This document shows, piece by piece, positions 11,401-58,229 of a stretch of DNA of 64,000 nt. Within the stretch, counting starts at the first letter, position 1; each line of letters starts with the position of its first letter. The position numbers were made by a program, and so were the translations under genes. The DNA lies in NCBI GenBank assembly GCA_963920665.1, contig OY987271.1, positions 9,737,350-9,801,349 of the forward strand. The letters run 5' to 3'. The notes beneath the pieces are model-generated. The model made no database searches. It saw nothing but the letters and a program-made list of their open reading frames with translations, and was not told the origin of the DNA. The DNA is from Straminergon stramineum (lineage: Eukaryota; Streptophyta; Bryopsida; Hypnales; Calliergonaceae).

Positions 11401-13575
11401 TCAAAATTGGAACCACCGGCGCACCCAGTAGTTCAGTTTCTTTAAGGCAGGTGGGAACCAAGCAGGAGATCTTGGCCAAGGAGCAGATTTTACACCTATG
11501 CGAGCATCAGTCGTTGCACACTTGGGTTGCAGTCTCCTCATGGCAAAAAACGTTTGCATAATATCAGCACTTTCTTCAGCTAATACACCTCGCCGCACAG
11601 AGATGGTTCTATGAAATGGGTGAAGGTAGTCCTTGCCTTTGGGTTCCTGTTCGCAAGTCGACGACACTGGAAATAGCCTGCAAGCGAAAAATGAAAAATG
11701 ATCAACATGATCAAACATCCTATCAGCATTTTGACACAAGTAGGAGTGAAATTTCTGGGACATCACGATAGAGATTTGGAGAGATCTTGGGTCACAAGAG
11801 CCAAATCTATTGAGATCAAATTTTTGTCACTATGTAAGACTCGTGTATGCAATTTCAAAGTGAGGTTGTCGACCGCTATAACTGACAGTCAACCACCCCA
11901 TTTCCATTCAATGATCATAGGCAATAACAAATTAGACACGTCATGCTTATACCCAACTTTCTAATTGAAGGCCATCCAGGGAACGAACGATGAGTTGCTC
12001 TTGGTCACACAAGTGTCAGTATAGAAGACGGCATCAGGTCTCTACTGGTTCTAGTATTTTCAATCTTTGGTCATGTGTAAAGCAGAGTGAACACGGAACA
12101 AAAGCATTCAAAAAATTAAGTATACAGATGGTAGAATGCCCACTTGATCCAACTCCCATCTGCACCGAGAAGCGAGTTGGGTGCACCCCAGACAAGCTCG
12201 CTCATCCTGCCTTGCAAAATAGCCCCTGCACACATAGGGCATGGCTCCAATGTGACATACATAGTCACGTCCTGCAGCACGATTTTCTAGTGTTAGCGAG
12301 TCTCCCAAACCTCCCAAACCAACACCTGAAAAACGACCATCATGAAATCCCTTGAGCAGGGACCAAATACGAGGTCTGTGAGGTACATTATACGGAAACA
12401 CGTCCGAAATATTTCACCGTCTCGTCAGAAGAAAGTAGGGACACACCAAACCAGAAAATAAATAAATTCTAAAAGGTAGAGTATCAAACGGCATCATAAC
12501 GACAGTAAATATTCCTGCAAAGTAAACTTTCAAGTGAAGGTATCTCTGCAATGAGCCTATATCGTTTGGACATTATACGTTGAGCAACCACCTAATTACA
12601 ATAGCTCCACATGATTCCGAAATACCTGCCCACATCATACAGGGCAACACGTTGAATCACACAGGCGAGATAGGTGGAACATCACGTACCGTAAGTCGCC
12701 AGCTACCTAATTGAGCCGCAGCACTGCGAATGCACAGCATTTCTGCATGAGCGGTGGGATCATTGCTGGTCTCCACTCTGCGCTCACCCACTGTAACATC
12801 AACACAACATTACAAGGCGGACAATCAAATTTAAAGATATTGATGCAAAGCTCCAATCAAAGAAGCAGATCATTCTTCAATAAGAAAGGGAAAAATAAGA
12901 TCTGGTTCAGGGTGCGCATTACACTTACTGGTTATGAAACCGTGCAATGATCTTATTGTTGTGCACGAGAACAGCGCCAACTGGTACTTCGCCTTGCTTC
13001 GCCGCTTTTCTCGCCTCTACCAACGCTTCCTGCATGTAACCTAAATCTTCCTCCTCGGAGTACAACCTCTTCGAAGCCTTCGGAACAACTGTTTTCCGCT
13101 TTCGCTGGCGACGTCCAAGCAATCTTGGATCAACAGGCATATCCACACTCGAAGCTTCCTGGAACTCCGGCGTAGCGGCTTCTTTGAGCAGCTCTTGCTC
13201 CAAAATTGGCATATACTCGGCTGACCCAGTACTCCTCGGCTTGGGAATGGATCCAAGAATGCAATCCTCCTTCACAATTCTAGGCTTGGCAACTTGTTCC
13301 TTCGGTACAAGATGCGGGTTTAGAAAGGGAAACGGAGGCTCAGAAGAGGAGGAGGCATACCACCTCAGTGGATTCCGGAATGGGCGATTGATGGTCAGAA
13401 AGGAAGCGTAAGAAAGGAATTGAGGGGCAAGAAGCGGCGTCAAGTCACGATGCGCAGCGAAAGTATTGCGGGGAGGAAGAATTGATGCGTCCATTGCAAC
13501 AGACGAGGAGAATCTCCGAAGAAACAAAGGGCGAAGGTGAAGAAACATCAATGACCCCCTCATGAGGCCAGGCAT
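11401..13575 (-). CDS. TADA: tRNA adenosine deaminase, chloroplast TADA type
   Basis: TADA enzymes deaminate A34 to inosine in the anticodon of chloroplast tRNA-Arg(ACG). Exons on the reverse strand: 13575-12929, 12777-12690, 12271-12144, 11677-11401, all phase-consistent, giving about 379 residues. The zinc-dependent deaminase signature is intact: H226-A-E228 (in DPTAHAEMLCIR) and PCPMC with Cys256 and Cys259. GEVPVGAVLV, WGAPNSLLGADGSW and a conserved HPFHRTISVRRGVL tail follow. The N-terminus is Arg/Ser-rich and lacks acidic residues (RPLFLRRFSSS), as in an organellar transit peptide. It is far shorter than Arabidopsis TADA, whose long N-terminal extension is absent. The intron 1 acceptor must be the GCGCAG ending at 12778; the stronger-looking one upstream gives a frame with a stop. 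Start could also be the Met at 13563. Confidence 0.9.
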
Positions 13576-14145
13576 AGGGCACACATCCTAAATCCGCGCC
13601 GTGGAAGAAGAATGCAGAACTCTACCATGAATGGACGTGGAGAGCTCCGCATCGCAAGAATCCCGTGCCTACACATCGTGGCATTGATGCAATTAGGGTT
13701 CCTCCTTCAATTCCATCTTTGAGCAAACTGAACCTCGATCTCTTCAATTAGGAAAATCACAATTCGGGAAAAACCATCGATATCAAGACAAGCTGAAAAT
13801 TTCATGGACTACACTTAACCTAAAATCAAATCCACACAAACCCATCACAAAGAATCACGTCCTGCACATGGTATTAGGGTTCCACGCTAAATTCCAACTT
13901 TGAATAAATAGAGCAAACTTTGCTAAAGACTCAATCGCATCATGTTCGCAATATGGGCGAAAACACCGATGAGTAGTTATGCTGAAAAACTCATGCACGA
14001 CACTTTGAGAAAAAATCCAGTCTACGCAAACGCCATCACTGGAGAGCTCCAGAGCGGGTGATTCAGATGGAACACTGCCACCTTCACTTTGACATAAAAT
14101 TCATGATAAAGCCATTGGAAACATAAGAACGAAGGTGATACTTAC

Positions 14146-40672: not shown

Positions 40673-41005
40673 TTATTTCAAGAAAGAGCGAATCGCAGCT
40701 ACAGCATCGCCCTTATGCTCTCTCAACGTCCTCTCCGCCACTTTCTTATCCAGTTCGAGCTCGTTCGCAATGATGTCCACATCCCCGGCGTTGATTTTCA
40801 CCGCCGCGAGCTCCTTCTCCCGGAGCCTCTGCGCGTTCCTATCCGCATCTGAAGTGGCCGCGATGGAGGCCATCGCCTGTTGCACGCGCGTGGAGTCCAG
40901 CTGCCGGTCCTCGACATGGTCCGTCAGGGAATCGAGCGCCTTGCTCTGCTGTTGCAAGTCCTTGGAGTCGGGCTTCCCCGCCACTTCCACGCCCTCATCC
41001 GCCAT
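40673..41005 (-). CDS. HYPK: HYPK homologue, NatA-associated UBA protein
   Basis: HYPK binds the ribosome-associated N-terminal acetyltransferase NatA (NAA10/NAA15) and affects its activity and stability; in plants it supports NatA-dependent acetylation. A single exon codes 110 residues, normal for the family. The N-terminal part is acidic and disordered, a charged helical stretch includes REKELAAVKI, and the C-terminal UBA-like domain (about 68-109) has DIIANELELDKKVAERTLREH-type features and ends RSFLK. The start is the ATG at 41005; an upstream open frame is leader. The next gene begins 320 bases downstream on the same strand. Confidence 0.9.
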   Translation of the reverse strand: MADEGVEVAGKPDSKDLQQQSKALDSLTDHVEDRQLDSTRVQQAMASIAATSDADRNAQRLREKELAAVKINAGDVDIIANELELDKKVAERTLREHKGDAVAAIRSFLK

Positions 41006-42239
41006 CGCTCCTCCTAGCCCCAAACTCTTTAAAAAAAAACTCGAAAACGCTACAAAATTGTTCTTAAATGTTTCGTAATGCAAAAAAGTTTCACAACCCA
41101 AGAATATCTCGAGTAACCTCGTTGGGATTTCTGAGTGTCTGCGAACAATGAGCAACCACAATGACGCGAGCAAGCTCGTTGCAATTCTAAAGTTTTAGGG
41201 TTTAGAGTGACTTCCGCGAATCTCATAATTGTTATCCGCCTGTCCTGTTACCCGCCAAGTCAGGCCCAGGACGCCACTGATACCCGGATGCTCTCCATGT
41301 TACCCTTCAAGGCCTAGGAAGCCCCATTTGTAGTTGCAACTTGCAACATGGTGTTTTTTGTGTATTTGACATAAGGTAGAAACACCTAAAACTAGCAAAA
41401 TAAGAAATTCAGCATCATTGGAAGCACCTTCATCCAAAAAAAATATTTATGTAGTATTAGCAATTGAAAATCATGAATTTCAAAAAATATATAATTTTTG
41501 GATATGACATGTAATTTCTATGAATTTTCAAAGTGGAAGCTCCATAGGCCACTATAACCATCATATAGTTGGACCTAAAACCAAAATTTAGAAAAATCAT
41601 TAGTCAACTAATCATAGTTAAGTATGGGAATAGTTTAATGACACTTTTGAGGAACACTTTAATAGAAATCTAATATACAAAAATAGCCAATTGTGGGTGT
41701 TTTTATCCTAGAAGATTTAGGAAATGAGGTGTCTACAAGTAGTAGTGACAAGAGTTTGTCCTCATTCTAAATCAAATTCAATGACATTTAGTTGATTGAT
41801 CATTATTGCATCTCTAACATGGTTGAGAAATTACAAAATGATGAAATATTTTGATTGTATGGTGTTAATTATATAATATTTGAGTATGAAAAGGTTAAAT
41901 ATTAAAATGACATTTGAATGAAAGATACTAATTGTTGAATTTTGAATCTAATGGTATATTTTCTATACTTAATTCATAATTTAAGAGCCAAGTATGATAT
42001 TATATATTGAGCCCTTTACAACCTTTTAATAATAAACCCATAAAGATCCTTCCCATAAAAATGTGAATATGCTAAACTCAAATTCCAATCCAAACCTTTA
42101 AATGCCTATTTTTTGTGCTTGATTTTAAGTACTCAATTAATAATTCAATTAGCATGAGTATTTAAATAATTTGAGGCCCTATACTATAATTGAATATATT
42201 TTTGGATGACTGTTGATTGATGGCAATTACACTATTTAA
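41006..42239. other. HYPK promoter and AT-rich repeats
   Basis: About 200 bases of GC-moderate promoter and leader, then AT-rich DNA. The segment 41440-41640 matches 14620-15020 and carries the uninterrupted site of the SINE-like insertion there. Confidence 0.5.
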
Positions 42240-45188: not shown

Positions 45189-48100
45189 ATGGTGAAGGTG
45201 AAAGGCATCGAGTGGAACCACGTGATCGTGATCAAGGAGCCGGAGAAGCATGGCATGGCGACGCTGGTTCGGTGCATCCACTGCGACAAGGAGTTTCAGG
45301 GGAATGCGATGCGGATCCGGGCGCATTTGCTGGGGAACAAGCGGCAGGCGGGCGTGACGGGGTGTCCCACGGTGCCGGACGAGGCGCGCGAGGAGCTTCG
45401 CTTGATTGAGATCGCCCGGGAGCAGACGCAGAAGAAGCGCAAACCTGGGGGCGGCAAGATGCGGGGCTCCGCGGGAGGGCCGCGCGGGGCGTCGTCGGCG
45501 TCGGACCATTCGTCCGGAAGCGCCGAGCATTTCGACGGGAAAGTGCTCACGTCGGGGCGGAAAGGCGACCGGATGAGCTCGCAGCACGAAATGCTCTTGC
45601 GTATGGTATAAAAAATTATGCCTTTGAATTTCATTTTAGGTTTCTTCTCTCTTCCTCTTCATTTCATTGCCCTTAGGGGAGTCTCAGTAGTTTTCCTCTG
45701 GTTCCCCCAGTTTGCTGAATGCTTCACGTGTCCCAATCTCATTGGATAACCTGCTCAGCTTCCCGGAATTGGCTGAAGATCTAGTACTCATCGTTTGTGC
45801 AGCGTGATCTTTCCCCGAATTCGTTGATGAACAGGCTGGTTAGTGTGACTACCCTTATGAGTAACTGCGCGAAACGAAACGCAACACTGAACCGAAGCAA
45901 GGAATCCCTACCTTTACAAAACGGTGTTATCCTTGGTTTGAAGATTGATTTTGCTTGCAAATGCGATTGCTTGGTGTTCCTTGGGAACGGGATTGGTTCT
46001 CTTTCTTAACTTTGAACGACCATGAGGCCCAAATTTGTTCTTATGTTTTTCTTAGCAGTTTTGAGGAAGTTATATCGGAACTTTCTTTACTCCAATTTTG
46101 TTTTTTCTTTTGACCAACTTATGAAGTGTTCTTCACTGATAGTGATGATATAATTTTTCTGCCTCATCTGAATTTTATGATGAATTGAAGAGGTCACTTT
46201 TAAAATCATGAATCGTTGGTCCTTACGGGATTAGCTTGTGATGAACGACATTGAATTGAATTTTCCCTTGCCGTCGTCGTGAATGACTTTTTGGATTCCG
46301 GCGGGAGGTTTAAGTCTTCTGAAATTAGGGCGGGGATAGTATCCGCAATTGTTAGTTTCGGATTTGCCCAGACTGCAGTTTTGAACTCTAAGCAAGTAGA
46401 TTCATTTTGAAGGAATGTCAATCATTGTGTTTGGAATTGTCTGAGATTTTGTTCCTTTAAAAGCGCGGGTTAAAATCCTTTTGATCACCTTGCATCTTCT
46501 TTAGGGTCGGCTTTTAGGAGAGGTACGTGATGATGTACGCTGAGAGATACTGAGGGATAAGTAGCTGTTGCTAAGTGAGGGTTGGCCTGGGGCTGCAGTG
46601 GTTAATTTGAGTTAGTTTAAATTGGTAAATGTCTTTGAAATTTTAAGCCTTTTGTTTCATGCTTGTCGCTTCAACTTAAGCAATCTAAAGTGGTTCTTTG
46701 TTTCAGTAGAGGAGTAAATTTTGGGTTTCCTTTAGTTTCTGTGTTTAGTATGTCATTGTAATGAAGTCTTTCTCTTCGTACCTAACCCAAGTAATTATTA
46801 CAGAGGGTACTTCCAAAACGGGTAGGAAAAGAGAATAAATGATTTTGTTTGTAGAAAACGATCTATTTTGCATTGTCATGCACCGGGAAGGTGCCTTGCA
46901 TATTGGCATTTTCGTGGATGTTTGAAACGTTCGTTCTGGAGCATTTTTGATGAGCGTGGGACATATCACAGGCTAGTTACCTTCATGCTTATCGCAAGAG
47001 GTCACGCTTGAACGTACACGGATGAGTCTCTGGGACTAAGTCGCAGAGAGCCTTGAAATTCAGAAGTATCGTGCGAAATTCTTGATACTGCTGTTGTATA
47101 TGGCAAGATGGGCATGCGCAAATCCCTTGAGTCTGACGAGGTTTTTGTATTGGTTTCCTTAAGCGTTGGATTTGTTTAGTCTTTTCAGCATTTTGTGTGA
47201 ATCTGATATTGTGATTTAGCATCCTATGACGTGAAGTTGTTTGTTCTGTTGTTTGTCAGAGCTCCATTATCGCCTCCATAGACCTTGACACCTTCTTTGA
47301 AGGTTTTGGACTTCGACCTGAAACCGTCGTCAAAATTAAGGAGATGGGATTCACTGCAAAAACTCTCATGTCTAATCTTGATGAACTCCCGTCTTTATTA
47401 GAGTCGATTAACCAACATCACCAGCTTACACTTGGTGAGGAGTGGGGGATCAAGGGTGCTGCAAAGAAGTGGCAAAGAGGTGACAATGTGAATCATATCT
47501 TTTTTAATGTTCTCATTGTCTGGTGTCGTGGATGCATTTGCCTGACATGTGTATTCGAAAGCAAGGTTTTCGACCAGATCTTCTGCAGTCTACTTGTATG
47601 CCACTGCATGTGTTTCCGTCTACTTCAGGAACTCTTATTGTGGCTTAAAACTCATTTCTGTTTGTGTGTTGAAATGCAGAGCAAATGTTTTTTGTACAAC
47701 CAGAAGATGAGAAATGGCCGGAATCGGAGGATACTTGTAAAGAAGTGGCATGCATTGGTGAGTTTGTTCAGACTCTATCTCCCTTGGTAGATTACCACTG
47801 ACTACTAGGGGTAACCTCTTGCTCTTTAGACTAGTCCGCTGTGATTAACTTTCCAATTCTTTCTGAATTTTGGTTTTGTTTGATGTAGCTCAAAGCTAGC
47901 GCCTATCGATGCTTACACAGACATGGTCCTCAGATAGTGAAGAAGTGACACAACTCGACCCCTACTCTAAGTGGATGCAGCAGCAACAACAAGGGCAACA
48001 ACTCCAATCACCGCATTTAGTATCACCTCCGAGCCTTACTGCTCATAATTTATCCCCACCAAATCCAGATGTCACAGATGTAAGATCACATGTTCTGCGT

Positions 48101-48700
48101 TTTACTTGTGTCTCTCTGTTCGGCATTCTGTGGCTTTTCATCACAATCTGCGATTCGCTGCTGTGGCATATGTCAGCGCTGCATGTATTCTGTTCGTCTT
48201 TGAAGTCTACCTTTATTGTCTCTACCCGAAGGGAAGAAACTAAGTTTACAAAAAGTACACAATTCTTGTATTCAATTAAATGAAAACAATGATCGCATGT
48301 TGTGGTTATCATTCCAAACACTGAATTTCTTGCATCCAATAGATTTGTGACATGTGGTTACAGGAATAGTGGTATTCTAAGATGTGACATAGGGCTTTTG
48401 AAATTATCAATCATTTAGGAACATAATGAGGATTGAATGGTAAGAGACATGAAAATTCTATTTGGAGTAGAGGCTCTTGCGATTAGCCGCTTGTTAACCT
48501 ATGAATATTTTCTTCTTCTTTTGCAGGTTGGACCAGGGGGATCACCAGGAAGGGTAGGCTACTATACGAATCTGTTAGCGTACCAAGCTAATCAAGGAAA
48601 TGGCCGCTTTGAGATGTTGAGGGAAGTAGACGTCGCTTCGCAAAGACAACCACCACAGGTCAAACATTCTTTTGACCATGGCGCTGCAACTACATTTTAA
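45189..48700 (+). CDS. BED zinc finger protein with a LEAFY-like SAM domain
   Basis: Exons: 45189-45605, 47260-47479, 47680-47757, 47934-48079, 48527-48700, phases 0/1/1/0; 344 residues. Residues about 8-62 form a BED-type zinc finger (Trp9, Cys29-x2-Cys32, His46, Cys59) of the kind in hAT transposases and plant genes derived from them, followed by a basic, Gly/Ser-rich linker. Residues about 146-209, almost exactly exon 2, resemble the N-terminal SAM oligomerisation domain of LEAFY/FLORICAULA: FFEGFGLRPETVVKI, KEMGFTAKTL, and GEEWGIKGAA correspond to conserved LEAFY segments. The C-terminal part is Gln/Ser/Pro-rich with no further domain; the LEAFY DNA-binding domain is absent. It is probably a nuclear DNA-binding protein that self-associates; this is inference. 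Splicing of exon 3 to the acceptor before 47934 is forced by frame; an upstream acceptor meets a stop. Confidence 0.75.
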
Positions 48701-55421: not shown

Positions 55422-58229
55422 TTACAACGTTAGATGTCTTGGTTGGGAAGGTTGGGTGGCAGTACGAGAAGCCCGGCTCAACCGCTCACGACGAGCTTCA
55501 ATCACACAAATGCAACGCACACTGGTCAGATTAAGGCATCCGCTTGTGATGACAGACCTGCGCTCTGGACACGTATGCAGTTGTGGAAAGGTATCACACA
55601 AGGCCTGCACAGCTTGAGCGGACAAAGCCGTGCAGCCACTAAGGTTGAGTGACACTAGGCCATAGCCTGCAGGATCCCTTAGATAGGAAGTATCAAACCC
55701 CCCACCCTTGGATGTACTGATGACGTTGCTATTGCAGCTGCTTCCGCTGCTGGAACTGCAGCTCCCTGCGCTGCTATAGCCGAAGGAACTTCGGCTGGTG
55801 GTGGGATACTCGTTGCGGTCCCGAACTCTCGTGTTGGAGCCTGTGCTGCTGCTCCGTTTGTTGCTTCGCAATGCGTCTCTGCGTTTGCTGCTGTTCACGA
55901 GGGAGTAAATGGCGACGTCGGTGATGTTGCGGCAGCAGTGGAATCCCAGGACTCGTAAACGAAGGCAGTTGTCGGCCAAGATGATTACACTTTGATCTGT
56001 GGGTGGGCAAAGTTAGTGGAAACGTCTGAGGTGGAGAAAAGAACTGGGTTGATTATGGACCGTGATCTGAATTCTAACTATCCTGAGTAAAGACGGCATT
56101 ATCAGAAGTTTGATCGACGCAAGAATTGTTCCATATAAGATCGATGACATATTAAGTAAAAGTTATGTTGGACAAACCTGTAATCTGTAGGCACCCACAG
56201 AAATCAACAAATCGTAAATCGCGGCACCCACGTGCCAATGCGGTTACACCCACATCTGTTATTTTTTCACACCATCCTACATTCAGGTATTGCAGCCCAC
56301 TACAATTTTGAGCTAAAGCCTGCCAAGCAAAATTCGCAGAGCCTGTCAGTAATGCCTCCATCAACCCCAGTGAGCTTGCCGAGATCTTAAGTAGAAATGA
56401 ACAAAAATGAACACAAGAGAGGAGATAGAAAGGCAACTCAGTTTCAAAAGAAATTACACAATATCAGAGATCAAATATTATGATGCGTCACAAGCTTGAA
56501 AACCTTACCACCAAAGCAGCATCAGAGCCGGCATTATCACAACCACAGAGGTTCAGGTGCCTCAGGTGCTTGCAATGCTGCGCAAGTCCAACAAGTCCAG
56601 CTTCAGAAACGCCCACACAACCACTGAGGTCCAACTTCTCCAGTAAAGGGCAGCCATTGGAAAGAGCGATTAACGAAACATTTGTAAGGCGTGTTCCATT
56701 CGTCAAGTCCAAGGACCTCAATTCATGCCAATGAGCAACACCTGCTCTCATAGCATCGTCCGTGAGATACGAACAGCGTCGAATACTGCAATTTTCGAGG
56801 CGGGAGAACTTATGCGCCACAGATTGTACTAGGTTGCTCACGCTTTTTTTACACCTGAACAATCGATTCTTTCAAGTTTAAATTTCAATAAACGGCCCAT
56901 GACGAGCTGGGGAATCGTAAATAATCAGATGAATGAACTGTCATTCTTACCATGCAAAAGAAAGGTCAGTAACCCCCGCACAAATGGAATCTCGCCACCC
57001 AGTGCACACCCCTGTGGCTACCACCACTGTCCTATCATCCCCGAGTGCTAAAATTCGAACTAACAGCTCCATTGGCATGTCCTTCCACTTAGATTCAGCC
57101 GTATCCCCCTGTTTTTCGTCTACAGCATCCTCTGACCCCATGCCTATAACTCTTTTCTGCATCATCTTCTTCCACCTATGTTTCATATCACGAGGAGCCG
57201 ACTCCATCTCATCATCTTCAGAGACCCAGAACAGGCCGGAACTTTGAGGCAAACCTTTCCACGTCATCCTCTCGAACATTCCCAAGGAGTCCAAGTCACT
57301 ACCGTCGACACCAACTTCCGATGTGTAGTACCCGGCTTGAGGGTCATATATTTGCCCTGAACAAGTAACCATAAACCACATCTTTGACAATTAAATTCGA
57401 AAGGCAATGACGGTGAATGCGAAAAACTGATATGTATTAATAATTGATCTTTAATTAAAAAGGGGGGACTGAACCCTTGTATCCACCGAAGATCGGGTAT
57501 GACGAAAAATTTATCAATTTGAAATGCCCAATGTTAGTAACAGTCCTTCATACAAAATCCTAATTCAGAATCGCTTTTATTGTAAACATTCATCGTTTGA
57601 TTCTCAGCCTAAAGTACCAAAATCTTTCATTCGGAGCCACTATGCTAAACGAGTTGAGTTTTTGAGGAAGTCGAGCAAATGTCACCACTGCGAGAAGTAA
57701 AACTTACCCGCGCATGGGTCAAAAATTCTTCCCTACTTTGAATCAAGAATCTATATTGCAAAAAATGCGACACTGATAGGATGCACAGTTCTAAAAATTA
57801 TGCTAGCTACGTGACTGTACCATAAGTCCATCCTTTAAAGCCGCTTATGGCAAAATACTTGCAACCCTAATCAAATGTCCAAAATAGTCCAGCAGACGTA
57901 CTGTTTTACCAACTGACCTCGGGAAAGAGAATCCAGTCTCAAATCTCAAGAGATGTTATGGACAAGGCTCTTGAAAACGGAGTGAGAAAGAACAGCAAAC
58001 TGACAAGACTTTCGTCTACAAATTGCAGAGAGATAAGAGAAGATACCAGCCACACCAAATCACTGAACAATTTTCATAGAAGATCCGTCATTCAAAAAAG
58101 ACCCTAGGTAGCCTTTACCCTAAACAAGTCTCCTCAATTTTGTCGCATTTTTTAAAAGGACCTTCGCAGCAGAAATAAGCAAGAAACCAAAAAGCAAAGC
58201 GTCGTTTGCTCACCTTCTCTGGAATCCAT
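55422..58229 (-). CDS. SKP2A: F-box/LRR protein, SKP2-like
   Basis: F-box proteins recruit substrates to SCF ubiquitin ligases; Arabidopsis SKP2A directs turnover of cell-cycle factors such as E2FC and DPB and binds auxin. Exons on the reverse strand: 58229-58214, 57356-56951, 56854-56509, 56319-56178, 55996-55422, phases 1/2/0/1; 494 residues versus about 360 in SKP2A. The F-box begins WKDMPMELLVRIL (96-) and continues DDRTVVVATGVCTGWRD. Cys-containing LRRs follow: LENCSIRRCSYLTDDAM, LEKLDLSGCVGVSEAGL, LNLCGCDNAGSDAAL, LNVGWCEKITDVGV, VDFCGCLQITG and FHCCRNITDVAIYSL. The C-terminal LSAQAVQALCDTFPQLHTC and SGCLNL matches SKP2A. Additions are an acidic N-terminal region (about 1-95) and a Ser-rich stretch (about 340-395) between the last repeats. 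The tiny first coding exon ending GAAG gives the only good frame into exon 2. Confidence 0.9.

What the first reader, a model, noticed from the sequence alone, without database searches (positions are those of the whole stretch)
45189..48700. BED zinc finger joined to a LEAFY-like SAM oligomerisation domain
Seen: exon 1 codes a BED finger (Trp9, Cys29, Cys32, His46, Cys59) and exon 2 a segment with KIKEMGFTAKTL and GEEWGIKGAA. Known: LEAFY's conserved N-terminal SAM domain has the same spacing of a K-I-x-E-x-GFT-x-x-TL block and a GE-x-x-GIK-x-A block, and lets LEAFY multimerise and reach closed chromatin. I know of no described family pairing this domain with a BED finger; LEAFY is usually described as single-copy with both its own domains. 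Inference: a domesticated hAT finger captured a SAM domain, or a LEAFY paralogue lost its DNA-binding domain.
Basis: partly seen in the sequence, partly recalled or inferred. Interest (0 to 1): 0.88.

Follow-up and report, generated by a model that had tools for sequence, protein, structure and literature searches.

The report
Moss zinc-finger genes with LEAFY's oligomerisation domain
This moss gene joins a zinc finger to the self-assembly domain known from LEAFY, the flower-control protein, and mosses turn out to keep a small conserved family of such genes plus a second family that puts the same kind of domain on a different DNA-binding unit.

The parts
45189..45605 (+). exon 1 (139 codons, ends in phase 0): BED-like finger, basic stretch, low-complexity linker
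   Evidence: colinear with P0001-P0003
45213..45365 (+). C2HC BED-like finger, residues 9-59 (Trp9, Cys29, Cys32, His46, Cys59)
   Evidence: residues invariant in 7 of 7 aligned fingers; zf-BED 12.2 bits, below cut-off 20.6; in the model of orthologue P0001 strands at 12-16, 25-29, 35-38 and helix 40-48, mean pLDDT of 10-residue blocks 75-83 over residues 11-80
45432..45443 (+). basic cluster KKRK, residues 82-85, possible nuclear localisation signal
   Evidence: read from the sequence; inference only
45606..47259 (+). intron 1, 1654 bases, GT-AG
   Evidence: the join is uninterrupted in P0001-P0003
47260..47479 (+). exon 2: SAM domain exon, 220 bases
47281..47478 (+). LEAFY-type SAM domain, residues 147-212
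47680..47757 (+). exon 3: acidic EKWPESEDTCKEVACI segment; EKW invariant in the 12 aligned family proteins
47934..48079 (+). exon 4: Gln/Pro-rich tail of the C9-type paralogue
   Evidence: colinear with P0001 and P0037
48527..48700 (+). exon 5: conserved C-terminal tail ending DHGAATTF, and stop codon
   Evidence: colinear with P0001, P0025 and P0037

Best explanation
The gene is one of three paralogues, in this moss, of an old moss family of short, probably nuclear, regulators. An N-terminal C2HC BED-like finger contacts DNA. A LEAFY-type SAM domain polymerises the protein head to tail through the acidic/polar mid-loop surface of one molecule and the basic end-helix of the next, so that weak finger-DNA contacts become cooperative, as shown for LEAFY. 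Shown here: gene structure, the uninterrupted exon join in relatives, SAM_LFY homology, the predicted fold of an orthologue, conservation of interface residues by alignment, constraint on both domains, presence in three moss genera, and a parallel trihelix-type+SAM family. Inferred: zinc and DNA binding by the finger, nuclear location, oligomerisation and cooperative binding.
Confidence: 0.66

Rival explanations
1. A regulator of LEAFY itself: the SAM domain inserts into or caps LEAFY SAM polymers, and the finger is a protein-interaction or targeting module, so the protein tunes or competes with LEAFY.
For: Interface residues are compatible with LEAFY's. The genome keeps one intact LEAFY. In LEAFY, single-face SAM mutants still pair with each other (PMC4844672), so a partial partner could cap a polymer.
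Against: Only 28-37% identity between the 6 family SAM domains and the three LEAFYs aligned. No interaction data. Constraint on both domains does not discriminate.
Confidence: 0.2
2. The SAM fold is kept but does not polymerise; it is a simple protein- or RNA-binding adaptor on a finger protein.
For: R112 is Lys in the 6 family sequences; SAM domains have many uses (PMC4844672).
Against: All three named mid-loop residues are kept and both end-helix positions remain basic.
Confidence: 0.2
3. A degenerate LEAFY paralogue or a gene-prediction artefact with no function.
For: The UniRef name looks like an automatic domain match; one Physcomitrium model, P0025, lacks the finger.
Against: Long open exons with GT-AG joins, 86-90% identity to the closest full-length relatives P0001-P0003, dN far below dS, contigs too short to be unspliced, no LEAFY DNA-binding match outside LEAFY.
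Confidence: 0.02

Closest known systems
LEAFY/FLORICAULA transcription factor (PF01698 SAM_LFY + PF17538 C_LFY_FLO)
   Different: No C_LFY_FLO match in the 344-residue protein; PF17538 matched this genome only in the C4 LEAFY. The SAM lies C-terminal to a zinc finger instead of N-terminal to the LEAFY DNA-binding domain. R112 is Lys.
BED/hAT-transposase fingers (zf-BED PF02892; DUF659 PF04937 elements of this genome)
   Same: Trp, CxxC, H, C order; marginal profile match to N-terminal fingers of hAT elements of this genome (probability 44%, single-comparison E 2.3e-4, no control run)
   Different: zf-BED 12.2 bits, below cut-off 20.6; no DUF659 or hAT dimerisation match in the protein
Trihelix-type + SAM_LFY proteins of mosses (met here: own-genome C2 locus, P0047-P0052)
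   Same: A non-LEAFY DNA-binding domain N-terminal to a LEAFY-type SAM; conserved in the same three moss genera
   Different: Different DNA-binding domain (PF13837 Myb_DNA-bind_4, 57-62 bits in P0047-P0052; 'trihelix' is the recalled plant name); its SAM is 21-25% identical to the three finger paralogues' SAMs of this genome; R112 equivalent is Trp

Membership tests
SAM_LFY domain (PF01698) | profile score above the curated cut-off | tested here: met
   41.3 against 25.2 bits for the 344-residue protein
SAM_LFY domain (PF01698) | fold of the LEAFY N-terminal SAM (4ude) | tested here: met
SAM_LFY domain (PF01698) | mid-loop surface residues T72, T75, E83 | tested here: met
   kept in 6 of 6 family sequences aligned; residue numbers from PMC4844672, placed with the recalled Arabidopsis sequence
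SAM_LFY domain (PF01698) | end-helix residues R112 and R116 | tested here: inconclusive
   R112 is Lys in 6 of 6; R116 is Arg in 1 and Lys in 5 of 6: charge kept, letter not
SAM_LFY domain (PF01698) | head-to-tail oligomerisation | not testable with these tools
   needs purified protein
[quoted passage not shown]
   no match up to E 1 in the 344-residue protein; PF17538 matches in the genome lie only in the C4 LEAFY gene
BED zinc finger (PF02892) | profile score above the curated cut-off | tested here: not met
   12.2 against 20.6 bits, 12.7-14.2 bits in 4 of 8 relatives and no match in the other 4
BED zinc finger (PF02892) | aromatic residue and CxxC, H, H/C zinc ligands in order | tested here: met
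   W9, C29, C32, H46, C59 invariant in 7 of 7 aligned fingers; the definition is recalled
BED zinc finger (PF02892) | zinc and DNA binding | not testable with these tools
   needs purified protein
hAT transposase | transposase (DUF659) or hAT dimerisation domain beside the finger | tested here: not met
   no such Pfam match up to E 1 in the 344-residue protein or P0001, nor up to E 10 in P0002 and P0003

The most novel reading that the evidence does not exclude
Mosses run a shared LEAFY-SAM assembly system: LEAFY, BED-like finger proteins and trihelix-type proteins carry compatible SAM domains and co-polymerise on chromatin, so that one polymer reads several DNA motifs at once. LEAFY's SAM domain was then never exclusive to LEAFY but a movable chromatin-access module.
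Probability: 0.2. Interest if true: 0.88.

Novelty: new variant of a known kind. Interest (0 to 1): 0.66.

Why it matters
Passages of PMC6588583 and PMC8742948 define LEAFY by two conserved domains, and the Discussion of PMC4844672 says its SAM domain has no sequence homology with other SAM domains. If that SAM domain also sits on a zinc finger and on a trihelix-type domain in mosses, then the part that lets LEAFY bind cooperatively and reach closed chromatin can be studied apart from LEAFY's own DNA-binding domain, in the laboratory moss Physcomitrium, where relatives of both families exist. It also warns that automatic 'Floricaula/leafy-like' names in moss genomes cover proteins that are not LEAFY, and that surveys keeping only an intact FLO_LFY domain (PMC6588583) would leave them out.

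Tried and rejected
Gene-prediction artefact: rejected, since every join is GT-AG and relatives carry the exons uninterrupted. LEAFY DNA-binding remnant at the locus: no PF17538 match outside the C4 LEAFY. Exon 1 donor at 45601 and other exon 4 acceptors: they break the frame; P0001 settles exon 4 at 47934. zf-BED census of the genome: 0 of 28 scored candidates at E <= 0.01, and the tool's control genomes gave none either, so it says nothing about absence. Finger profile against the PDB: 12 matches up to E 10, best E 0.12, none a BED structure by name. The finger's fold was not tested by fold search: the SAM part filled the list. hAT comparison: of 15 hAT loci held (out of 150 matches listed), 13 gave a finger piece, several of them cut short; L020 gave only a remnant that stayed in the alignment as first row; L030 gave none; no shuffled control was run. 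A first pattern for the same fingers found 0 of 15. The weak finger-only match at C2:14252346 (E 0.48, two stops inside) showed no clear coding context. Pairwise identities do not tie the SAM to moss LEAFY rather than seed-plant LEAFY (28-36% against 30-37%); with one moss and two seed-plant LEAFYs no tree of SAM origin was tried. NCBIfam: nothing for P0001 or P0048. Rfam: nothing in the window. PF26664, listed beside the finger region in the protein database, is not in the library here, so its name is unknown to me. PMC12866927 (two passages) only lists LFY among plant factor families.

Full report
What is there. On the + strand, 45189-48700 is a complete five-exon gene of 344 residues. All introns are GT-AG. 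Exon 1 (45189-45605) carries a C2HC finger, a basic stretch and a low-complexity linker; exon 2 (47260-47479) the SAM domain; exons 3-5 (47680-47757, 47934-48079, 48527-48700) an acidic segment, a Gln/Pro-rich stretch and a conserved tail. P0001, 340 residues with a longest contig of 1706 bases, is colinear with the whole model and 90% identical over the 238-residue query; a contig shorter than the gene with one uninterrupted frame is presumably spliced (inference, assuming similar introns in that plant). P0037 (178 residues, longest contig 1161 bases) covers part of exon 2 to exon 5, 99% identical over 30% of the query.

The first domain. Trp9, Cys29, Cys32, His46 and Cys59 are invariant in 7 of 7 fingers, but zf-BED scores 12.2 bits, below 20.6; of 8 relatives, 4 score 12.7-14.2 and 4 do not match; the finger profile found no BED structure in the PDB. 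The protein has no transposase domain. hAT elements with DUF659 are common here (150 of 150 scored candidates matched, of 676 found). Fingers at their N-termini match the family's profile weakly: probability 44%, single-comparison E 2.3e-4, with a remnant row left in and no control. So 'BED-like' is fair, 'domesticated hAT' is possible, neither is proven.

Family in this genome. G000 (326 Mb, 59 contigs; a moss by the orthologues found, inference) has five PF01698 matches: C4 (103.6 bits), C9 (the window, 43.9), C1 (41), C6 (36.8) and C2 (30). C4 is a two-domain LEAFY and the only place matched by the LEAFY DNA-binding profile; it reads KPKMRDYVHC where the seed-plant LEAFY P0046 reads KPKMRHYVHC, the moss type II letter as I recall it. 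C1 and C6 each have a finger exon, a SAM exon and a short third exon like the window gene. Nei-Gojobori distances between the three paralogues: finger dN 0.13-0.24 with dS 1.3 to saturation, SAM dN 0.05-0.20 with dS 1.0-3.7.

Family elsewhere. The search with the first 238 residues gave 42 hits; 10 carry a species name, all mosses: Ceratodon purpureus (2), Physcomitrium patens (4), Sphagnum (4). By my reading of table and sequences 16 of the 42 span both finger and SAM. A profile of 12 of them found 46 proteins; the only named non-moss is an ordinary LEAFY of Rumex. That search needs shared five-residue words and bounded length, so absence outside mosses is not shown. In a tree of 18 proteins (15 of the 42 hits plus the three paralogues; midpoint root) the C9 type groups with P0001, Ceratodon and Physcomitrium (100/100), the C6 type with Ceratodon, Physcomitrium and two unnamed rows (100/100), one branch (99/97) parts C1, C6 and their relatives from the rest, and the six rows of Sphagnum (4) and unnamed metagenomes (2) form a weakly supported group (82/83). 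Presence in Sphagnum, Ceratodon and Physcomitrium implies a family older than their split (inference; horizontal transfer not tested).

What it most likely does. LEAFY's SAM polymerises head to tail, limits monomeric DNA binding, and helps LEAFY reach low-affinity sites and closed chromatin (PMC4844672, abstract, part of Results, Discussion). A family that keeps the interface pattern beside a finger most likely uses the same principle: weak DNA contacts made cooperative by polymerisation. That step is inference. Rivals are capping or tuning of LEAFY itself, and a SAM adaptor that does not polymerise.

Known or new. The parts are known kinds; I found no description of the pairings. Searches (listings seen unless noted): LEAFY with BED zinc finger (one unrelated paper), LEAFY/SAM domain/moss (six), Floricaula/zf-BED (none), SAM_LFY (three), LEAFY/BED-type zinc finger/bryophyte (600 papers hold two of three terms, 20 listed, none of the 20 with the BED term), trihelix/SAM domain/LEAFY (one, on shoot meristem), TAPscan/LFY (three), LEAFY paralogs/mosses/SAM oligomerization domain (four), leafy-like transcription factor/Physcomitrium (none), LFY/sterile alpha motif/moss (three). 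The library holds open-licence papers only. PMC6588583 (passages) kept only sequences with an intact FLO_LFY domain, which would exclude this family; PMC8742948 (passages) describes LEAFY as two-domain; PMC8075897 (passages) reports a single LEAFY in Anthoceros hornworts. UniRef names seven of the 42 hits 'Floricaula/leafy-like transcription factor', so they are visible to automatic annotation but, as far as I could see, not recognised as a separate architecture.

Verdict. Real, conserved, and a new variant of a known kind. The mechanism is plausible and testable in Physcomitrium but not shown.

Noticed in passing
L018 (G000:C2:22119500-22129400, minus strand); P0047-P0052: Second architecture: a trihelix-type domain (PF13837) joined to a LEAFY-type SAM, conserved in Ceratodon, Physcomitrium and Sphagnum.
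   Followed up: yes
L042 (G000:C2:117500-126500), SAM at G000:C2:120038-120241 minus: A further trihelix-type SAM copy (62% identical) in a 120-residue open frame with no trihelix match in the 9 kb fetched; SAM-only gene, distant exons or a fragment.
   Followed up: partly
L019 (G000:C4:9575500-9585400): The one genuine two-domain LEAFY found in this genome, with Asp where seed-plant LEAFY has His in KPKMRxYVHC (moss type II as recalled).
   Followed up: partly
L020-L034: hAT elements with DUF659 are very common in this genome (150 of 150 scored candidates matched, most listed without a stop inside the match).
   Followed up: partly
window 12925-13587 (-), 40673-41194 (-), 56947-57390 (-): Ordinary neighbours: a cytidine-deaminase-type exon, a HYPK-like UBA protein, and an F-box-like exon (the last below its cut-off).
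   Followed up: partly
P0001, P0003, P0020-P0023 and others: The protein database lists a Pfam family PF26664 for some members and finger-only pieces but not for the Sphagnum-named ones; the library here does not hold it.
   Followed up: no
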